The notes beneath the pieces were generated by a model. That model was not told the origin of the DNA, did no database searches, and saw nothing but the letters and a program-made list of their open reading frames with translations. A stretch of DNA of 64,000 nucleotides from Steroidobacteraceae bacterium (GTDB lineage: Bacteria; Pseudomonadota; Gammaproteobacteria; Steroidobacterales; Steroidobacteraceae), in NCBI GenBank assembly GCA_029266835.1, contig JAQSWD010000003.1, forward strand, positions 1 through 64,000, given 5' to 3'. Position numbers and translations under genes: made by a program. Every line of letters begins with the position of its first letter. Position 1 is the stretch's first letter. Below, piece by piece: positions 1 through 59,840 of this stretch.

Positions 1-662
1 AGCACCATGTCGTTGGCTTCCAGCTGGCGCGACAGCATGTCCACTTCTTGCCGTGCCGGCATGGTGTCCTGGTACGCCTTGTACGCGTCGATCTTTCCCG
101 GGCCGATGAGGGCGGCGACCTCGCTCATGTTCTTGTCGTTCGCGAAATTTGCCCCCCGGTCCCCACGGCCACGGTTGGCCGAGTCCATCTGCTGGTCGAT
201 CATGAGGTCGATGAGCTTGTTGGTTTCTTCCCTGGTGAGCCCCAGCTTGTCACCGATGTCGGCGTTCATCCGTTTGAAGTTGGCGCGCAGCTGCGAGCGC
301 ATCATCTTCTGCATGGCTTCGGTTCGTACCGGCGGGCCGCCGGTGCGGGCACGCTCGGGCGATCCCTCGACGGCGGGACTTTCGGAAAGCTCGACCGAGG
401 CGGAAGTGGGCAAGGCCGCGGGTCTGCCGCCAACGGCAGGTGCGGCGGCACCGTCCGCGCCGGCCGCGCCAACCATCATCCGCATCGATTCCAATTCTGC
501 ACGGGCGGCCTCGAGCTCGGCGATGCGCGCGCTCAGCACGCGTGACTGCTCCAGGACCTCGTCAGCGTGGGCTCGCTCGTCGTTGAGCTGGGCGGCGAGG
601 TAGATAGTGCTGGCGCCGAAGGCGCCGGCCGCTATGAGCAGGCCCAGCATGGAAGGCTTCAT
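1..662 (-). CDS. membrane-anchored coiled-coil protein, 3' end cut by window edge
   Basis: This reading frame has no stop inside the window and is therefore missing from the ORF track; I translated it from the reverse complement. It starts at the ATG whose complement is at 660-662 and gives about 220 residues before running off the left edge. The N-terminus (MKPSMLGLLIAAGAFGAS) looks like a signal anchor. It is followed by a charged helical stretch (residues about 27-55), an Ala/Pro-rich linker, and a helical domain rich in Met, Gln and Asp. That fits a periplasmic protein held by one membrane segment. I do not recognise a family and no function is proposed. The long plus-strand ORFs at 7-603 and 48-545 are its shadows. 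Confidence 0.7.
   Translation of the reverse strand, partial: MKPSMLGLLIAAGAFGASTIYLAAQLNDERAHADEVLEQSRVLSARIAELEAARAELESMRMMVGAAGADGAAAPAVGGRPAALPTSASVELSESPAVEGSPERARTGGPPVRTEAMQKMMRSQLRANFKRMNADIGDKLGLTREETNKLIDLMIDQQMDSANRGRGDRGANFANDKNMSEVAALIGPGKIDAYKAYQDTMPARQEVDMLSRQLEANDMV
600..607 (-). repeat. CTATCTAC word family, first of 13 copies
   Basis: By eye the 8-mer CTATCTAC or its complement starts at 600, 1033, 10337, 12181, 13267, 18936, 21522, 28231, 45852, 48096, 50857, 53007 and 58591. Twelve copies are in genes, all on the coding strand; one (12181) is intergenic. Nine are read as TAT CTA C (Tyr-Leu) and three as ..T ATC TAC (Ile-Tyr). Confidence 0.7.
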
Positions 663-15561: not shown

Positions 15562-15990
15562 CTAACTACGGATATAGCTCTCGAGGTCCGCGATCGTGCG
15601 TTCCTGCTCTTCGATCACCGCGCGCACCAGGTCGCCGATGCTGAGCACACCCACCACGCGTTCGCCGTTCACCACCGGCAGATGGCGGATGCGCCGGTCG
15701 GTCATGAGGCGCATGCAGTCGTGCGCATCTTCGCGCGGTGACACCGTGAAAACCTTGCCGGTCATGATGGCGTTGACCGGGGTTTCGGTGGAGGAGCGGC
15801 CCAGCAGCACTACCTTGCGTGCGTAGTCACGCTCGGAAACGATGCCGACGAGTTTGTCGCCCGACATCACCACCAATGCGCCGATGTGATGCTCGGCCAT
15901 CTTGCGGATGGCGGCCAGGACCGGTTCGTTCGGCCCGATCGAGTACACGCCCTTGGGCTTGTGATCCAGCAACTGTTGCACGGAAAGCAT
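15562..15990 (-). CDS. tandem CBS-domain protein
   Basis: 142 residues made of two CBS motifs: about 10-65 (GVYSIGPNEPVLAAIRKMAEHHIGALVVM) and 75-135 (VFTVSPREDAHDCMRLMTDRRIRHLPVVNG). Such stand-alone pairs bind adenine nucleotides and act as energy or ligand sensors for a partner protein. A ribosome-binding sequence (GGAGGT) precedes the ATG on the minus strand. The end of the gene contains GTAGTTAG, i.e. the stop lies within a CTAACTAC word. Its partner is not evident. Confidence 0.92.
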   Translation of the reverse strand: MLSVQQLLDHKPKGVYSIGPNEPVLAAIRKMAEHHIGALVVMSGDKLVGIVSERDYARKVVLLGRSSTETPVNAIMTGKVFTVSPREDAHDCMRLMTDRRIRHLPVVNGERVVGVLSIGDLVRAVIEEQERTIADLESYIRS

Positions 15991-16039: not shown

Positions 16040-16479
16040 TCAAACGGGCGCGACCGTCAGCACCGCGCCATTCACCCCGGTGACGCGCACCCGCGCGCCG
16101 GCCGGCAGCTCGGGCCCGGAAACCTTCCAGACGCTATCTCCGACCTTGGCCTTGCCCGAACCCTGCTCGATGGGTTCGATCAGCACGAACTCGCTGCCAA
16201 TGTACTGCACGCCGCGCTGGTTGAGCGTCGGCTGTTCTTCCTTCTCGGGGTTCTTTTTCCGGTAATTGAGGTAGGCCAGCATCAGCACCACCCCGAGAAC
16301 CGCGAAACCGATCCACTGCCACTGCCACGGAATGGGCAGGACGACGATCAGCAACCCGATGATGGCCGCGGATGCCGCGAACCAGATGGCGATGGCGCCG
16401 GGCATCACGGTCTCGAGCGCGGCGAGCACCACCGCGAACACGATCCACTGCCACCAGACCATGTTCGTGAGAAAGGTCC

Positions 16480-16483
<4 letters not shown>
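16040..16483 (-). CDS. NfeD family membrane protein
   Basis: 147 residues. Two or three N-terminal membrane helices ([34 protein letters not shown] and following) precede a soluble OB-fold NfeD domain from about residue 85 ([33 protein letters not shown]). NfeD proteins pair with SPFH proteins; the E. coli counterpart is YbbK beside QmcA. Here the start overlaps the stop of the SPFH gene by 4 nt (ATGA), so the pair is translationally coupled and probably forms one membrane complex. Confidence 0.93.
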
Positions 16484-17460
<977 letters not shown>

Positions 17461-17688: not shown

Positions 17689-18177
17689 GTGTCAGAAGCC
17701 CCCATTCCCGAAATTCAGGTCGATCCCGATCACTTCGATGTCGTCACCACCGATGTCGTGCTGGTCGCGCAGCTCGAATCGACGTTCGCGTTATGTCTGT
17801 ATGACGCGGTGCTCGAATCCGGGGCGCTGATCCACCTGCGCGTGGGGCCTCCGGGCCGCGTGCAGGACCCCGAGCTGACCGACACCACGCTATCCACTGA
17901 CCTCCTGCTGCTGGATCGCTGCTTCGCGGAACTGCGAAAAGTGGAGCCGCGCGCGCAGCATTGGCAGGCGAAAGTGGTGGGCCAGGTGCAGGATTCCCCG
18001 GGCGCGCGCGAACGCTTCGACGGTGTTCGAGGCTTCCTTTCCGCCTTTCTCGCCGACACCAACGTGAAACTGATTTCCTGCGATACACACGTGGACCACG
18101 TTCAGCTGCTGCGGTTCCGTCCCGCAATGGGACACGTGCGCAGCGAGCCTCTTGCCGCGTCGCGCGCGGGAGGCTAA
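17689..18177 (+). CDS. CheD-like protein lacking the catalytic cysteine
   Basis: 162 residues starting at GTG. The segment LESTFALCLYD, then ALIHLRVG, aligns with the CheD active-site region (family form G-S/T-C-V...LYD...H...LP). Later blocks WQAKVVGQV, RERFDGVRGFLSAFL, VKLISCD and LLRFRPAMGHV follow the order of CheD strands and of the R/S-F-x-P-x-T/M-G ending. CheD deamidates Gln residues of chemoreceptors with a Cys-His-Thr triad. Here the Cys position reads Thr while the His is retained, so deamidase activity is doubtful. No chemotaxis gene is nearby. A TAGTAT hexamer ends 9 nt before the GTG. Confidence 0.7.
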   Translation: MSEAPIPEIQVDPDHFDVVTTDVVLVAQLESTFALCLYDAVLESGALIHLRVGPPGRVQDPELTDTTLSTDLLLLDRCFAELRKVEPRAQHWQAKVVGQVQDSPGARERFDGVRGFLSAFLADTNVKLISCDTHVDHVQLLRFRPAMGHVRSEPLAASRAGG

Positions 18178-18189
18178 AAAGGGCGCGCT

Positions 18190-19962
18190 ATGCGCCGTAT
18201 AACCATTGCCCTGTTGGCCCCGCTCGCGGGTTTTCTCATTGCCGCTCCGGCCCTCGCCGCCAAGAAGCCCGCGAATGCTCCGCTGCTGAAGCTGTTCGAC
18301 CAGGTCTGGCAGGAGGACCTCGCGGACGATCCGATCATGGCCACGCAGCTTGGCGACAATCGCTACAACGACAAGCTGCCCGACATGTCGCAGGCGGCGG
18401 TCGATGCCCGCAACGCGCGCAATTTCACCCGCCTCGCCACACTGCGCAAGATCAAGAAGGACAAGCTCGAAAAGGCCGACCTGCTCAATTTCGACCTGTT
18501 CGAGCGCGAGATCAACGACAAGATCAACGAAGCCACCTTCAAGTCCTACCTCTATTCCATCCGCAGCAACGAAGGTCCGCAGCAGCTGGCGGAAGTCTCC
18601 GAGTTCGCGCCCTTCGCGACCGTCAAGGACTACGACAACTGGATCGCCCGCATCAACGCCTCGGGCGTGTACTTCGACCAGTGGATCGCCCTGCTGCAGG
18701 TGGCAGTGAACGAACGCCGCGTCCAGCCGCGCGTCGTCATCAACAAGGTCATCGAGCAGATCAAGCCGCAGCTCGTGACCAATCCCGAGGATTCGGGCTT
18801 CTACACGCCATTCAAGAAGATGCCGGCCAGCATTCCGCAGGCCGAGCAGGAACGCCTGCAGGCCGCCGCCAAGGCGGCCATCCAGGCCACCGGCGTGCCA
18901 GCCTATCAGCGCTTCGAGAAGTTCCTGCGCGAGGTCTATCTACCGGGCTCGCGTGATTCGGTGGGCATCAAGGACACGCCGGACGGCGAGCAGTACTACC
19001 GCAATCGCATCGCGCACTTCACCACCATCTACAATCAGCAGCCGACCAACATCCATAACATCGGCCAGGCCGAGGTGAAGCGCATCCGCGCGGAGATGGA
19101 GAAGACGCTGGAAGGCATCAACTTCCTGGGCAACCTGGACCAGTTCCTGGTCTTCCTGCGCACTGACGACCGCTTCTATTACAAGACGCCGGAAGAACTA
19201 TTCGCCGCGTACGAGAAGACCGCCCGTGCGATCGAGCCGCAGCTTCCGAAGCTGTTCGGCAAGCTGCCGAAGACCCCGTTCGGCATCCGGGCCATTCCGG
19301 CGGCCAGCGCGCCCACCACGACCACGGCCTACTACCAGCCGCCGTCACTGGATGGCTCGCGCCAGGGCTACTACTATGTGAATCTGTACAAGCCCGAGTC
19401 GCGTCCGATCTGGGAAATCGAAGCCCTGACGGCGCATGAGTCGGTGCCGGGCCACCACCTTCAGATCGCGCTGTCGTATGAACTCAAGGGGATCCCGGAG
19501 TTCCGCCGCAACGCCGGCTACACGGGCTTCATCGAAGGCTGGGCGCTTTACTCAGAGAGCCTGGGCTCGGAGTTGGGCCTGTACACCGACCCCTTCCAGA
19601 AGATCGGTCAGCTGAACTACGACATGTGGCGCGCGGTACGCCTCGTGGTCGACACGGGCATCCACCAGTTCGGCTGGACCCGTGAGCAGGCGATCTACTT
19701 CTTCAAACAGAACACTGGCAAGAGCGACCAGGACATCCAGAACGAGGTGGATCGCTACATCTCCTGGCCGGGCCAGGCGCTGGCGTACAAGTTAGGTCAG
19801 CTCAAGATCCAGGCGTTGCGCGCCGAAGCCGAGAAGGCCTTGGGCAGCCGCTTCGACGTGCGTGCGTTCCACGACCAGATCCTGGGCAGCGGAGCGTTGC
19901 CGTTGTCGGTGCTCGAGACCGAGACCCGGGCCTGGATCGCCGCGCAGAGCGCTCGGCGGTAA
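18190..19962 (+). CDS. DUF885 family secreted metallopeptidase-like protein
   Basis: 590 residues with a signal peptide (MRRITIALLAPLAGFLIAAPALAA). The catalytic-looking motif HESVPGHHLQIALS lies at about residue 417, followed by FIEGWALYSESLG, the second zinc-ligand region. This is the HExxxGHH/EGWA pattern of DUF885 proteins, which are related to gluzincin peptidases. The ending (AYKLGQLKIQALRAEAEKALG...LPLSVLE) is also typical of the family. It probably acts in the periplasm on peptides. The gene is 12 nt downstream of the CheD-like gene on the same strand and could be co-transcribed. Confidence 0.92.
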   Translation: MRRITIALLAPLAGFLIAAPALAAKKPANAPLLKLFDQVWQEDLADDPIMATQLGDNRYNDKLPDMSQAAVDARNARNFTRLATLRKIKKDKLEKADLLNFDLFEREINDKINEATFKSYLYSIRSNEGPQQLAEVSEFAPFATVKDYDNWIARINASGVYFDQWIALLQVAVNERRVQPRVVINKVIEQIKPQLVTNPEDSGFYTPFKKMPASIPQAEQERLQAAAKAAIQATGVPAYQRFEKFLREVYLPGSRDSVGIKDTPDGEQYYRNRIAHFTTIYNQQPTNIHNIGQAEVKRIRAEMEKTLEGINFLGNLDQFLVFLRTDDRFYYKTPEELFAAYEKTARAIEPQLPKLFGKLPKTPFGIRAIPAASAPTTTTAYYQPPSLDGSRQGYYYVNLYKPESRPIWEIEALTAHESVPGHHLQIALSYELKGIPEFRRNAGYTGFIEGWALYSESLGSELGLYTDPFQKIGQLNYDMWRAVRLVVDTGIHQFGWTREQAIYFFKQNTGKSDQDIQNEVDRYISWPGQALAYKLGQLKIQALRAEAEKALGSRFDVRAFHDQILGSGALPLSVLETETRAWIAAQSARR

Positions 19963-56533: not shown

Positions 56534-59512
56534 TCAGAACGTGCCGCGGATACCCAGCAGCACCGCGTATCCCGGGTCGTAGAAGGCGCGGGCCGCGTTG
56601 CTGAAGGCTCCGCTGTCATTACCCCAGGTCTGGCGAATGGTTTCGCCGGTGATGTTGATCACGTTGAGCGTGATCTGGGGCGACGACGGCAGGCTTTCGA
56701 ACTTGTAGCTCGCCGACAGGTCCAGCTGGTTGGTCGCGTCCGTCCAGAAGCGGGCACCAGTGATGCCTTCCTGGTTGGTTCCGGACGAGATCTGCTCGTC
56801 GTTGTGCACGAATGACAGCCGGACGGAGGCGGGTCCATTGTCGTAATACAGCGTGGCGTTGTATGTGACCGGCGCGATACCCACCGCGACGGCCGGCTGG
56901 CCCGTCCCACCCTCGGTGCTCTGCTTCACGTTGGTGTAGTTCGCCTGAAAGCCGAATCCTTCCGTGATGAAGTTGAGAGGCTGCACCCAGGTGAGTTCGT
57001 AGCCGCGGATGTTGAGCTGGCCAGGCGCATTGATCTGACGCGTCTGGTTGACCGTTGCCAGGCCGGGTCCACCACGGGAAGTGATGGCCGTCTGCTGCGT
57101 CGGGCTCAACGTGTCGAAGGTGATGCCCAGCGGCGCGAGGCTGCTGAAGGGCACCACGGTCAGCTCACCCACCGTGAAGCCGGTGATTTGCTTCTGGAAC
57201 AGCGTGAGGCCCACGTAGCCTTCGTCGCCCGTGTACCACTCGCCGCCCAGGTCGATGTTGGTGGACAGGTAAGGAGCCAGTGTCGGGTTGCCCACGGTCA
57301 GCGCCTGCGCGGACGGATCGCTGAACTGCGCGTTCGGCAGCATGTCGCGCGGGCTGGCGCGCGTAATGGTGCGCGAGCTCGCGAAACGCAGCACGACATC
57401 GTCTCTCACCGTCAGTGCCGCGCTCATCGACGGCAGGAACTGCGAGTAGGTAGTGTCGTTGCTCGCCTGCACGATGGTGATGGTGGTGCCGTTGTTGAGC
57501 GTCACCGGGCCCGCCACGAACTGGTCGGTCTCGACGAAGCGGCCACCGAGGTTGTAGCGCAGCTCCTTGCCCAGGATTTCGCTCCTGGCATTGAACTCCA
57601 CGTAATAACCCATGGTGTCTTCTTCGATGATGCCGTTGGCGGCGCCAGTGGCCGCGCCGGTTCCTACCGGGGCATTGCGCGAATACTCGTGATAGTTGGT
57701 CGCGTCGAAGAAGGCGTCGTAGTCGACCGTGATGAACCCGGCCGGACCCGCCGTGAGGAACTGCGAAAGGTCGGCTTGCGTGACCGCCGAGCCCGCCTGG
57801 CCATTGCAGCCGGGGGCCGTACCAGGGGCGGGAATGAACGCACCGCCGCCACCGCAAACATGCTGCTGCCATTCACGGCTGTTGTCACGGCCCGAAATGC
57901 CGCGATGCATGGAGTCATAGGCCAGGCCCACCTTGATGTTCTGATCGTCGTCACCGAACGTGAAATCGAGATGCGCGCCCTCGTTGGTGACCAGCCTCTT
58001 CTCGTTCTGGATGTTCACGCGGCCGCCGCCGGCCCAGGTCCATCCCAGGTTCGGATCGTTGACGTCGGCACTCGGGGTGATGGTGACGAAATCGCCGCTG
58101 GTGTTGTCGAAGTCGGCCGTGATGCCCTGGTTCAGCGGAGTGTTGACCAGGATCGTCGGTGCTTCGCGGAAGAACCAGCTGCGGCTCTTGTTCACCGCGA
58201 GGTCCATGCGCACCGAATCATTGATCTGCCAGCGCGCGCCGGGGTTGAACCCCCAGAAATCCACCTGTTCGTCGTAGGGACGGGCCTCGAGGAACCACTG
58301 GGCATTGGCAATTGTGGCGCTGGTGACCACGTTGTTGTCGTCGACCTGCATCGCCGTCGGAATCATCGCGCCATTGCGGCCGACGAGATTGAGATCCAGG
58401 CGATTGAAGGCGCGGTGTGCCTTGGAATACAGCGTGTCGAAATACAGGTGCAGATCGTCGGTGGGGCGGTACTCGAGAGAGACCAGGCCCGAATAACGAT
58501 CGCGGTTTCCGTCGATGAAAGCCGGCCGGCCGAGGCGCGGGAACAGCGCCTGGTCGATCTGCCGCAGCGACAGGCCAGGGTTGATCTGCTGTAGATAGGC
58601 ACCGTCGATCGGCGTGCCGGCGACGAGGCCCGCACCGGCATTGACGGGCACCGCGCCCGGGATCACCCAGCCATTGCCGCCACCCACGTTGCAACCGCTG
58701 TTGGCGCCGGCTCCGGCATTCGGGCTGGTCGCGGGCGTCGTGACGGGCGGCGCGACGCCGCACTGGAAGTAGCTGAGGTTCGGATTCGTGTAACCGATGG
58801 TTTCGAAGCCGGTCGTCGTGGAGTCGGAGTCGACTCCCGCGAAACCGACCAGCACGCCGAACTTCTCTCCCGTCCAGCTTCCCATGAGCGAACCGCGCGG
58901 GCTCGTGGCCTCGCTGGCATCGCTGTAGCCGGCCTGAAGCTGGTAATTGAAATGCGTGCCCGGGTTGTCGAACGGCCGCGCGGTGCGCATGTTGACGGTA
59001 CCCGCCGCGCCGCCTTCGAGCTGGCTGGCCACCGGCGACTTGCTGACGTCGAGCCGGGTGAACAGTTCCGTCGGGAACAGATCGAGGTCGAGCTCGCGGT
59101 TCTGGCCCTGGCTGTCGACGCGGCCCGTGGAGGCCACGCCCACGGCGGCGCCGTTGATGGTGGTCTTCGTGAAATTGGTGTTCAGGCCGCGAATCGCGAT
59201 ATTGAGACCTTCACCGGTCACTTCGCGCGTCAGCTGGACGCCCGGGATGCGGTTGAGCGATTCGGCGATGTTCAGATCCGGGAACTTGCCGATGTCTTCG
59301 GCGAACACCGAATCGGAGAATCCCACGGACTCGCGCTTCGCATTCGTGGCGCTCTGCAGCGAGGCGCGATAGCCGGTCACGGTGACCTCTTCGACTTCCT
59401 CCTGGGAGCGCTCAGGTTCTTGCGCTTGCGCGGACGCGGTGGCGGTCGCCAACGCGGCGCATACCCCGGCAGCCACGAGCGAAAGCTGGAAATTCTTTGG
59501 ATGGTCAATCAT
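56534..59512 (-). CDS. TonB-dependent outer-membrane receptor
   Basis: About 992 residues from MIDHPKNFQLSLVAAGVCAALATATASAQ, which has a signal peptide and a GGGGG ribosome-binding site; the track start 92 codons earlier is spurious. The TonB box region is EEVEEVTVTGYR. The plug domain contains DIGKFPDLNIAESLNRIPGVQLTRE, GEGLNIAIRGLNTNFTKTTINGA and the LEGGAAGTVNMRTARPFD end. A 22-strand barrel follows and ends in Phe (GIRGTF). The form matches the carbohydrate/xenobiotic-type receptors abundant in Xanthomonadales-like bacteria. A GntR regulator is divergent. Confidence 0.95.
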   Translation of the reverse strand: MIDHPKNFQLSLVAAGVCAALATATASAQAQEPERSQEEVEEVTVTGYRASLQSATNAKRESVGFSDSVFAEDIGKFPDLNIAESLNRIPGVQLTREVTGEGLNIAIRGLNTNFTKTTINGAAVGVASTGRVDSQGQNRELDLDLFPTELFTRLDVSKSPVASQLEGGAAGTVNMRTARPFDNPGTHFNYQLQAGYSDASEATSPRGSLMGSWTGEKFGVLVGFAGVDSDSTTTGFETIGYTNPNLSYFQCGVAPPVTTPATSPNAGAGANSGCNVGGGNGWVIPGAVPVNAGAGLVAGTPIDGAYLQQINPGLSLRQIDQALFPRLGRPAFIDGNRDRYSGLVSLEYRPTDDLHLYFDTLYSKAHRAFNRLDLNLVGRNGAMIPTAMQVDDNNVVTSATIANAQWFLEARPYDEQVDFWGFNPGARWQINDSVRMDLAVNKSRSWFFREAPTILVNTPLNQGITADFDNTSGDFVTITPSADVNDPNLGWTWAGGGRVNIQNEKRLVTNEGAHLDFTFGDDDQNIKVGLAYDSMHRGISGRDNSREWQQHVCGGGGAFIPAPGTAPGCNGQAGSAVTQADLSQFLTAGPAGFITVDYDAFFDATNYHEYSRNAPVGTGAATGAANGIIEEDTMGYYVEFNARSEILGKELRYNLGGRFVETDQFVAGPVTLNNGTTITIVQASNDTTYSQFLPSMSAALTVRDDVVLRFASSRTITRASPRDMLPNAQFSDPSAQALTVGNPTLAPYLSTNIDLGGEWYTGDEGYVGLTLFQKQITGFTVGELTVVPFSSLAPLGITFDTLSPTQQTAITSRGGPGLATVNQTRQINAPGQLNIRGYELTWVQPLNFITEGFGFQANYTNVKQSTEGGTGQPAVAVGIAPVTYNATLYYDNGPASVRLSFVHNDEQISSGTNQEGITGARFWTDATNQLDLSASYKFESLPSSPQITLNVINITGETIRQTWGNDSGAFSNAARAFYDPGYAVLLGIRGTF

Positions 59513-59723
59513 CGGTTTGCCCCCTACGGCTGTTGAACTGAATGGGTGGCCGGTGTCCTCGAACGGACACCCGCTCTCGCAAAATTCAAAGGGGGTGGAA
59601 TCTCCGGTGCGAAATGCAGTAGCCGCGGTAAACCGCCGCCACCTCGCCGACCGGATCGATGCCCCCCACTTGGACAGCCCCAGGTCCGCAGACCCGGAGC
59701 AGTCCCGGCGAGGACCGTAACAA

Positions 59724-59758
59724 CTGGTCAGGCCAAATACAAGAATCCGCCTGACCAG
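59724..59758. promoter_or_regulatory. inverted-repeat operator candidate for the GntR regulator
   Basis: Perfect 10-bp arms CTGGTCAGGC (59724-59733) and GCCTGACCAG (59749-59758) are 15 nt apart. Each arm includes TGGTC/GACCA, the half-site of FadR-subfamily operators. The site lies in the 341-nt gap between the TonB receptor and the GntR gene, where it could control both. The rest of that gap shows only the candidate GntR promoter. Confidence 0.6.
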
Positions 59759-59840
59759 CTGGCTTGACCTGTTCAGATGGGTAGTCACCGATACCCGAAC
59801 CGTGATGCTGCGAGTGCTTGTTGCGGGCCGCCGGCCAACC

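What the first reader, a model, noticed from the sequence alone, without database searches (positions are those of the whole stretch)
17689..18177. Orphan CheD-like protein that has lost the catalytic Cys
The fold-specific order of motifs is retained but the active-site Cys is replaced by Thr, and no chemoreceptor, cheA or cheY is nearby. It may have become a binding protein, or it may pair with the DUF885 peptidase gene 12 nt downstream.
Basis: partly seen in the sequence, partly recalled or inferred. Interest (0 to 1): 0.5.

Follow-up and report, generated by a model that had tools for sequence, protein, structure and literature searches.

The report
Conserved CheD relative without its nucleophile
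This small gene encodes a relative of the bacterial chemotaxis enzyme CheD that lost its catalytic cysteine before one bacterial family diversified and has been kept under selection since, away from chemotaxis genes, so it most likely works by binding a partner rather than as an enzyme.

Summary
The ORF at 17689-18177 (+) is a full-length CheD homologue: the family profile hits T. maritima CheD 2f9z_C at E 1.6e-8, and the AlphaFold2 model (pLDDT 87) has 2f9z_C as its best PDB match. The catalytic Cys27 position is Thr32 and the Thr21 position is Ala27; only the catalytic His is kept (His49). This is not a one-off. 84 of 217 genomes of the window's family carry an orthologue; all 60 sequences aligned lack the Cys (Ala 38, Ser 12, Thr 9, Gly 1), the 31 put on a tree form one clade (100/100) apart from canonical CheDs, dN/dS is 0.07-0.38, and new residues are invariant (T64, D65, L68). 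Hits elsewhere in class and phylum keep LGSC...NHF wherever read. The gene is independent of canonical CheD (Fisher P 0.39) and of CheC (0 of 32 genomes); its neighbours differ between genera. The DUF885 pairing is confined to two genera. Best reading: a fixed pseudo-deamidase that acts by binding. The likeliest partner, by inference only, is the Pil-Chp chemoreceptor PilJ, apparently the only chemoreceptor in most carriers lacking canonical CheD; a test of that link was inconclusive after phylogenetic correction. New variant of a known kind.

The parts
17689..18177 (+). CheD-like protein without the catalytic Cys, 162 aa, GTG start
17767..17769 (+). codon 27 (Ala), equivalent of catalytic Thr21 of T. 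maritima CheD
   Evidence: alignment; Thr in 55/55 canonical CheDs, Ala 38/Thr 14/Cys 6/Ser 2 in 60 Cys-less members
17782..17784 (+). codon 32 (Thr, acg), equivalent of the nucleophile Cys27
   Evidence: sequence; Ala 38, Ser 12, Thr 9, Gly 1 of 60; Cys 55/55 in canonical CheDs
17794..17796 (+). codon 36 (Cys), conserved in both the Cys-less and the canonical clades, so not a replacement nucleophile
   Evidence: 59/60 and 55/55
17833..17835 (+). codon 49 (His, cac), equivalent of catalytic His44, retained
   Evidence: His 59/60
17878..17892 (+). codons 64-68 (T-D-T-T-L), motif specific to the Cys-less clade: T64, D65 and L68 invariant in 60/60, T67 in 59/60
18190..19962 (+). DUF885 (PF05960) protein, 590 aa, 12 nt downstream; adjacent in two genera only, not a fixed partner
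   Evidence: E 8e-181
16480..17460 (-). SPFH/Band 7 protein, divergent neighbour (with NfeD 16040-16483); neighbour in g1 and g9 only
15562..15990 (-). CBS-domain protein; stays near the CheD-like gene in several genera

Best explanation
It is a lineage-specific relative of CheD turned into a pseudo-deamidase. It keeps the CheD fold and the pocket His but lost the Cys nucleophile and, in the window protein, the Thr of the triad, so it should be unable to deamidate glutamine. A new set of conserved residues in and after the old active-site strand (R51, T64, D65, T67, L68, close in sequence to H49) suggests that the pocket was rebuilt for a new ligand. Most likely it works by binding. CheD binds the helical cytoplasmic part of chemoreceptors, and B. 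subtilis CheD is reported to regulate its receptor array mainly by binding rather than by deamidation. The likeliest partner is therefore a chemoreceptor, and the best candidate is PilJ of the type IV pilus Pil-Chp array. Shown: homology, loss of Cys, one origin of the lineage, purifying selection, independence from canonical CheD and from CheC, genomic orphan. Inferred: no deamidase activity, action by binding. Conjectured (about 0.3): PilJ as the partner. The confidence given is for the pseudo-deamidase that acts by binding, not for PilJ.
For: Fold and homology. Cys absent in 60/60, catalytic His kept in 59/60, new invariants. One clade, 100/100, separated by a long stem. dN/dS 0.07-0.38. 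Presence in 84 of 217 family genomes, unrelated to canonical CheD (36 both, 48 only this, 49 only canonical, 84 neither; P 0.39). CheC, the other known CheD partner, absent in 32/32 carriers. All 52 carriers tested for MCPs have one, and most carriers without canonical CheD have exactly one. In G182 that MCP is PilJ inside a pilG-pilH-pilI-pilJ-chpA cluster. Ten of the 52 have no flagellin match. Thirteen of 25 carriers without canonical CheD have no CheR match. Precedent for CheD acting by binding: PMC3513319.
Against: PilJ is also present in 40 of 46 genomes without the gene, and some genomes without the gene also have PilJ but no CheR, so neither the presence of PilJ nor the lack of CheR predicts it. 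The raw association with the long form of PilJ (31/42 against 5/38, P 3e-8) falls to about 2:0 independent pairs on the tree, not significant, and the window's own genus has the short form. The gene is not next to pil-chp genes in the neighbourhoods read. No binding or activity data exist, and a new catalytic use of His49 is not excluded.
Confidence: 0.65

Rival explanations
1. It is still an enzyme: the pocket was rebuilt with His49, Thr64, Asp65 and Thr67 to catalyse a different reaction that does not use a Cys nucleophile.
For: His49 kept in 59/60 and T64, D65, L68 invariant in 60/60; strong purifying selection. Fold neighbours NTAN1 and YfiH show that this fold serves several chemistries.
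Against: Those fold neighbours use a Cys. The residue at the nucleophile position is free to be Ala, Ser, Thr or Gly, as for a lost role. One member (L024) has Asn for His49.
Confidence: 0.15
2. It is a dedicated partner or regulator of the DUF885 protein encoded 12 nt downstream.
For: Same strand, 12 nt gap; the pair also occurs in other genomes of g1 and in g9.
Against: The pair was not found in the other genera looked at, where the CheD-like gene has unrelated neighbours.
Confidence: 0.05
3. It is still a receptor deamidase that uses another Cys, for example Cys36.
For: Cys36 is conserved in 59/60.
Against: Cys36 is equally conserved in canonical CheDs next to their true nucleophile (55/55), the Thr of the triad is gone in most members, and one member (L027) has Asn at 36.
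Confidence: 0.05
4. It is a decaying pseudogene of CheD.
For: Catalytic residues are lost.
Against: Open frame in every orthologue read, dN/dS 0.07-0.38, retained across more than a dozen genera with specific new invariants.
Confidence: 0.01

Closest known systems
Thermotoga maritima CheD (PDB 2F9Z chain C), receptor glutamine deamidase
   Same: Fold over the full length, order of motifs, His44 equivalent
   Different: No Cys27; Thr21 position is Ala; Gly-Gly motif before the second helix lost; no CheC found in carriers
Canonical gammaproteobacterial CheD (PF03975; here G000 contig 28, encoded beside MCP, CheW and CheR genes)
   Same: Same family of origin; the window's genome has both
   Different: Canonical proteins carry TVLGSC...GGMNHF (Cys and Thr 55/55); the window protein belongs to a separate clade and is not encoded with chemotaxis genes
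Bacillus subtilis CheD acting as receptor-binding regulator (PMC3513319)
   Same: Function through binding proposed to outweigh deamidation
   Different: B. subtilis CheD is catalytically competent and is controlled by CheC and CheY-P; no CheC was found in carriers here
NTAN1 and YfiH (CNF1/YfiH-like Cys hydrolase superfamily)
   Same: Core fold (Foldseek E 1.4e-5 for NTAN1; YfiH/DUF152 weaker, from 2e-2)
   Different: Cys enzymes acting on other substrates

Membership tests
CheD receptor glutamine deamidase | CheD fold | tested here: met
   best PDB match 2f9z_C, E 1.8e-8
CheD receptor glutamine deamidase | Sequence homology over the full domain | tested here: met
   profile against 2f9z_C, E 1.6e-8
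CheD receptor glutamine deamidase | Score above the curated cut-off of PF03975 or an NCBIfam CheD model | tested here: not met
CheD receptor glutamine deamidase | Catalytic Cys (Cys27) | tested here: not met
   Thr32 in the window; Cys in 0/60 members
CheD receptor glutamine deamidase | Catalytic His (His44) | tested here: met
   His49, 59/60
CheD receptor glutamine deamidase | Catalytic Thr (Thr21) | tested here: not met
   Ala27 in the window; Thr in 14/60 members
CheD receptor glutamine deamidase | Encoded with chemotaxis genes | tested here: not met
CheD receptor glutamine deamidase | Deamidates receptor glutamines | not testable with these tools
   needs biochemistry
CheC/CheD adaptation module | CheC in the same genome | tested here: not met
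   0 of 32 carriers; control genomes B. subtilis and T. maritima ring
Pil-Chp accessory protein (proposed) | Co-occurs with PilJ beyond shared ancestry | tested here: inconclusive

The most novel reading that the evidence does not exclude
A nucleophile-free CheD serves as the methylation-independent adaptation or activation subunit of a type IV pilus chemosensory array (PilJ-ChpA) that has no CheR, no CheC and no canonical CheD, so that CheD's binding function has been fully separated from its enzyme function by evolution.
Probability: 0.2. Interest if true: 0.7.

Novelty: new variant of a known kind. Interest (0 to 1): 0.42.

Why it matters
In B. subtilis it was argued that CheD matters as a binding protein and that its deamidase activity is minor. 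A natural, ancient, selected CheD lineage without the nucleophile, present in genomes that have only one detected chemoreceptor and no flagellin or CheR match, is a clean setting in which to test that idea. It may also point to a missing component of pilus chemosensing.

Tried and rejected
Pfam and NCBIfam scans alone were too weak to settle homology, so a family profile and a fold search were used. Cys36 as a displaced nucleophile: rejected, since it is conserved equally in canonical CheDs. Obligate DUF885 pairing: rejected on neighbourhoods. Link to the flagellar chemotaxis system: not supported (no co-occurrence with canonical CheD; 10 of 52 carriers without a flagellin match). Link to CheC: rejected. 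Link to long PilJ: raw association strong, but not significant after phylogenetic pairing, left open. PilI-like match at 57.8 kb in the window: spurious. Literature searches for a described Cys-less CheD found none in the held open-access library, which is not exhaustive. A first translation of minus-strand loci read the wrong strand and was redone.

Full report
What is there. The ORF at 17689-18177 (+) encodes 162 aa. NCBIfam CheD models match at E 9.9e-8, 2.2e-6 and 4.3e-4, all below their cut-offs; Pfam CheD does not reach the window protein and reaches 6 of 31 family members only weakly. A profile of 31 orthologues (A1) hits Thermotoga maritima CheD (2f9z_C) at E 1.6e-8 over positions 13-153. 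The AlphaFold2 model has mean pLDDT 87.4 and pTM 0.85. Its best PDB match is 2f9z_C (E 1.8e-8), followed by NTAN1 (1.4e-5) and, weakly, YfiH/DUF152 proteins, all of the CNF1/YfiH-like fold named in PMC7022378.

The active site. PMC7022378 gives the CheD triad as Cys27/His44/Thr21. In an alignment of 60 sequences of the window protein's lineage with 55 canonical CheDs and T. maritima CheD (the T. maritima row there is numbered two higher), the Cys column is Ala 38, Ser 12, Thr 9, Gly 1 in the lineage and Cys 55/55 in canonical CheDs. The Thr21 column is Ala 38, Thr 14, Cys 6, Ser 2 against Thr 55/55. The His column is His 59/60 against 55/55. The 60 rows include some genomes twice, because two searches brought in the same loci. 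The canonical Gly-Gly pair (window 98-99) is lost, as are canonical LGSC, NHF and R-Y-G. New residues are fixed: T64, D65 and L68 in 60/60, T67 and D123 in 59/60, R51 and R77 in 58/60. Cys36 is shared by both clades. So the old active site was dismantled at the nucleophile and new positions were fixed near the retained His. That looks like a change of role rather than decay.

Distribution and origin. In the window's own family (217 genomes) 84 carry this form, over more than a dozen genera. In a sample of 296 genomes of the order it was found only in that family. In samples of the class (369 genomes) and phylum (399 genomes) the matches outside the family that I read are canonical (lower-scoring hits were not read one by one). 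A maximum-likelihood tree puts all 31 rows of the Cys-less form in one clade, 100/100, with a long stem; canonical CheDs of the same family group with canonical CheDs of the class (the midpoint root is for drawing only, and branching inside is partly unsure). dN/dS between close pairs is 0.07-0.38. The host family is probably Steroidobacteraceae: genome G048 is one contig of 3,467,246 bases, which matches my memory of Steroidobacter denitrificans; this was not verified.

Context. Neighbourhoods of about 30 loci show no chemotaxis genes next to the gene by tblastn; response-regulator-like matches in L060 are the only exception seen. In g1 (the window's genus) and g9 the order is CBS, NfeD, SPFH (minus strand), CheD-like, DUF885 (plus strand). 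In g6 and relatives the gene stays near TrkA/TrkH/CBS/MnmG without DUF885. In g3 it lies near a DctA-like transporter and purD/purH. In g13 and g5/g10 it lies in other housekeeping surroundings. Those gene names come from reading translations, not from family scans. DUF885 is thus a local neighbour, not a fixed partner.

What it might bind. Canonical CheD and this form are distributed independently (36 both, 48 only this, 49 only canonical, 84 neither; Fisher P 0.39). CheC is absent from 32/32 carriers. All 52 carriers tested have at least one MCP and 10 have no flagellin match. In most carriers without canonical CheD there is a single MCP. In G182 it is PilJ in a pilG-pilH-pilI-pilJ-chpA cluster in which I saw no pilK or chpB; the others were identified only by similar scores or by PilJ searches. 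Thirteen of 25 such genomes have no CheR match. This leaves Pil-Chp as the only chemosensory array detected that a CheD-derived receptor binder could serve there. B. subtilis CheD binds receptors and activates CheA; a mutant with normal deamidase activity but poor binding behaves like a null (PMC3513319).

Limits of that inference. PilJ is present in 40 of 46 genomes that lack the gene; the six without PilJ all lack the gene, three of them in g7, whose one known carrier, G780, does have PilJ. Carriers tend to have a long PilJ (31/42 against 5/38 non-carriers, P 3e-8), but on a PilJ tree only about two independent pairs go the same way and almost none the other, which cannot reach significance, and the window's own genus has the short form. 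The long/short calls rest partly on stop-to-stop frames, and five were set by alignment coverage. Several non-carriers also have PilJ without CheR. Many of the genomes are incomplete, so single absences are weak. The PilJ link is therefore a testable guess at about 0.3.

Verdict. Its most likely mode of action is binding. It would work like the non-catalytic half of CheD's job; it is not filed as a member of the deamidase family in the functional sense, because two triad residues were tested and are missing.

Noticed in passing
L153:6189-15335 (G182): A Pil-Chp cluster (pilG, pilH, pilI, pilJ, chpA, chpC-like) in which no pilK (CheR) or chpB (CheB) gene was seen; 13 of 25 carriers without canonical CheD have no CheR match anywhere.
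   Followed up: partly
L157-L236: PilJ comes in a long form (about 700 aa) and a short form (about 450-520 aa open frame) with signalling domains mostly 70-85% identical within one bacterial family; the N-terminal sensor part seems to have been lost or replaced several times.
   Followed up: partly
L061:12322-19048 (G000 contig 28): The window's genome has an ordinary CheD in a cluster with MCP, CheW and CheR genes and two HDOD-like genes (named from the translations).
   Followed up: no
window 16040-17460: SPFH/NfeD pair (minus strand) divergent from the CheD-like gene, conserved in g1 and g9 together with DUF885.
   Followed up: partly
window 56534-59788: Large TonB-dependent-receptor-like ORF on the minus strand (1084 aa; named from the translation).
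   Followed up: no
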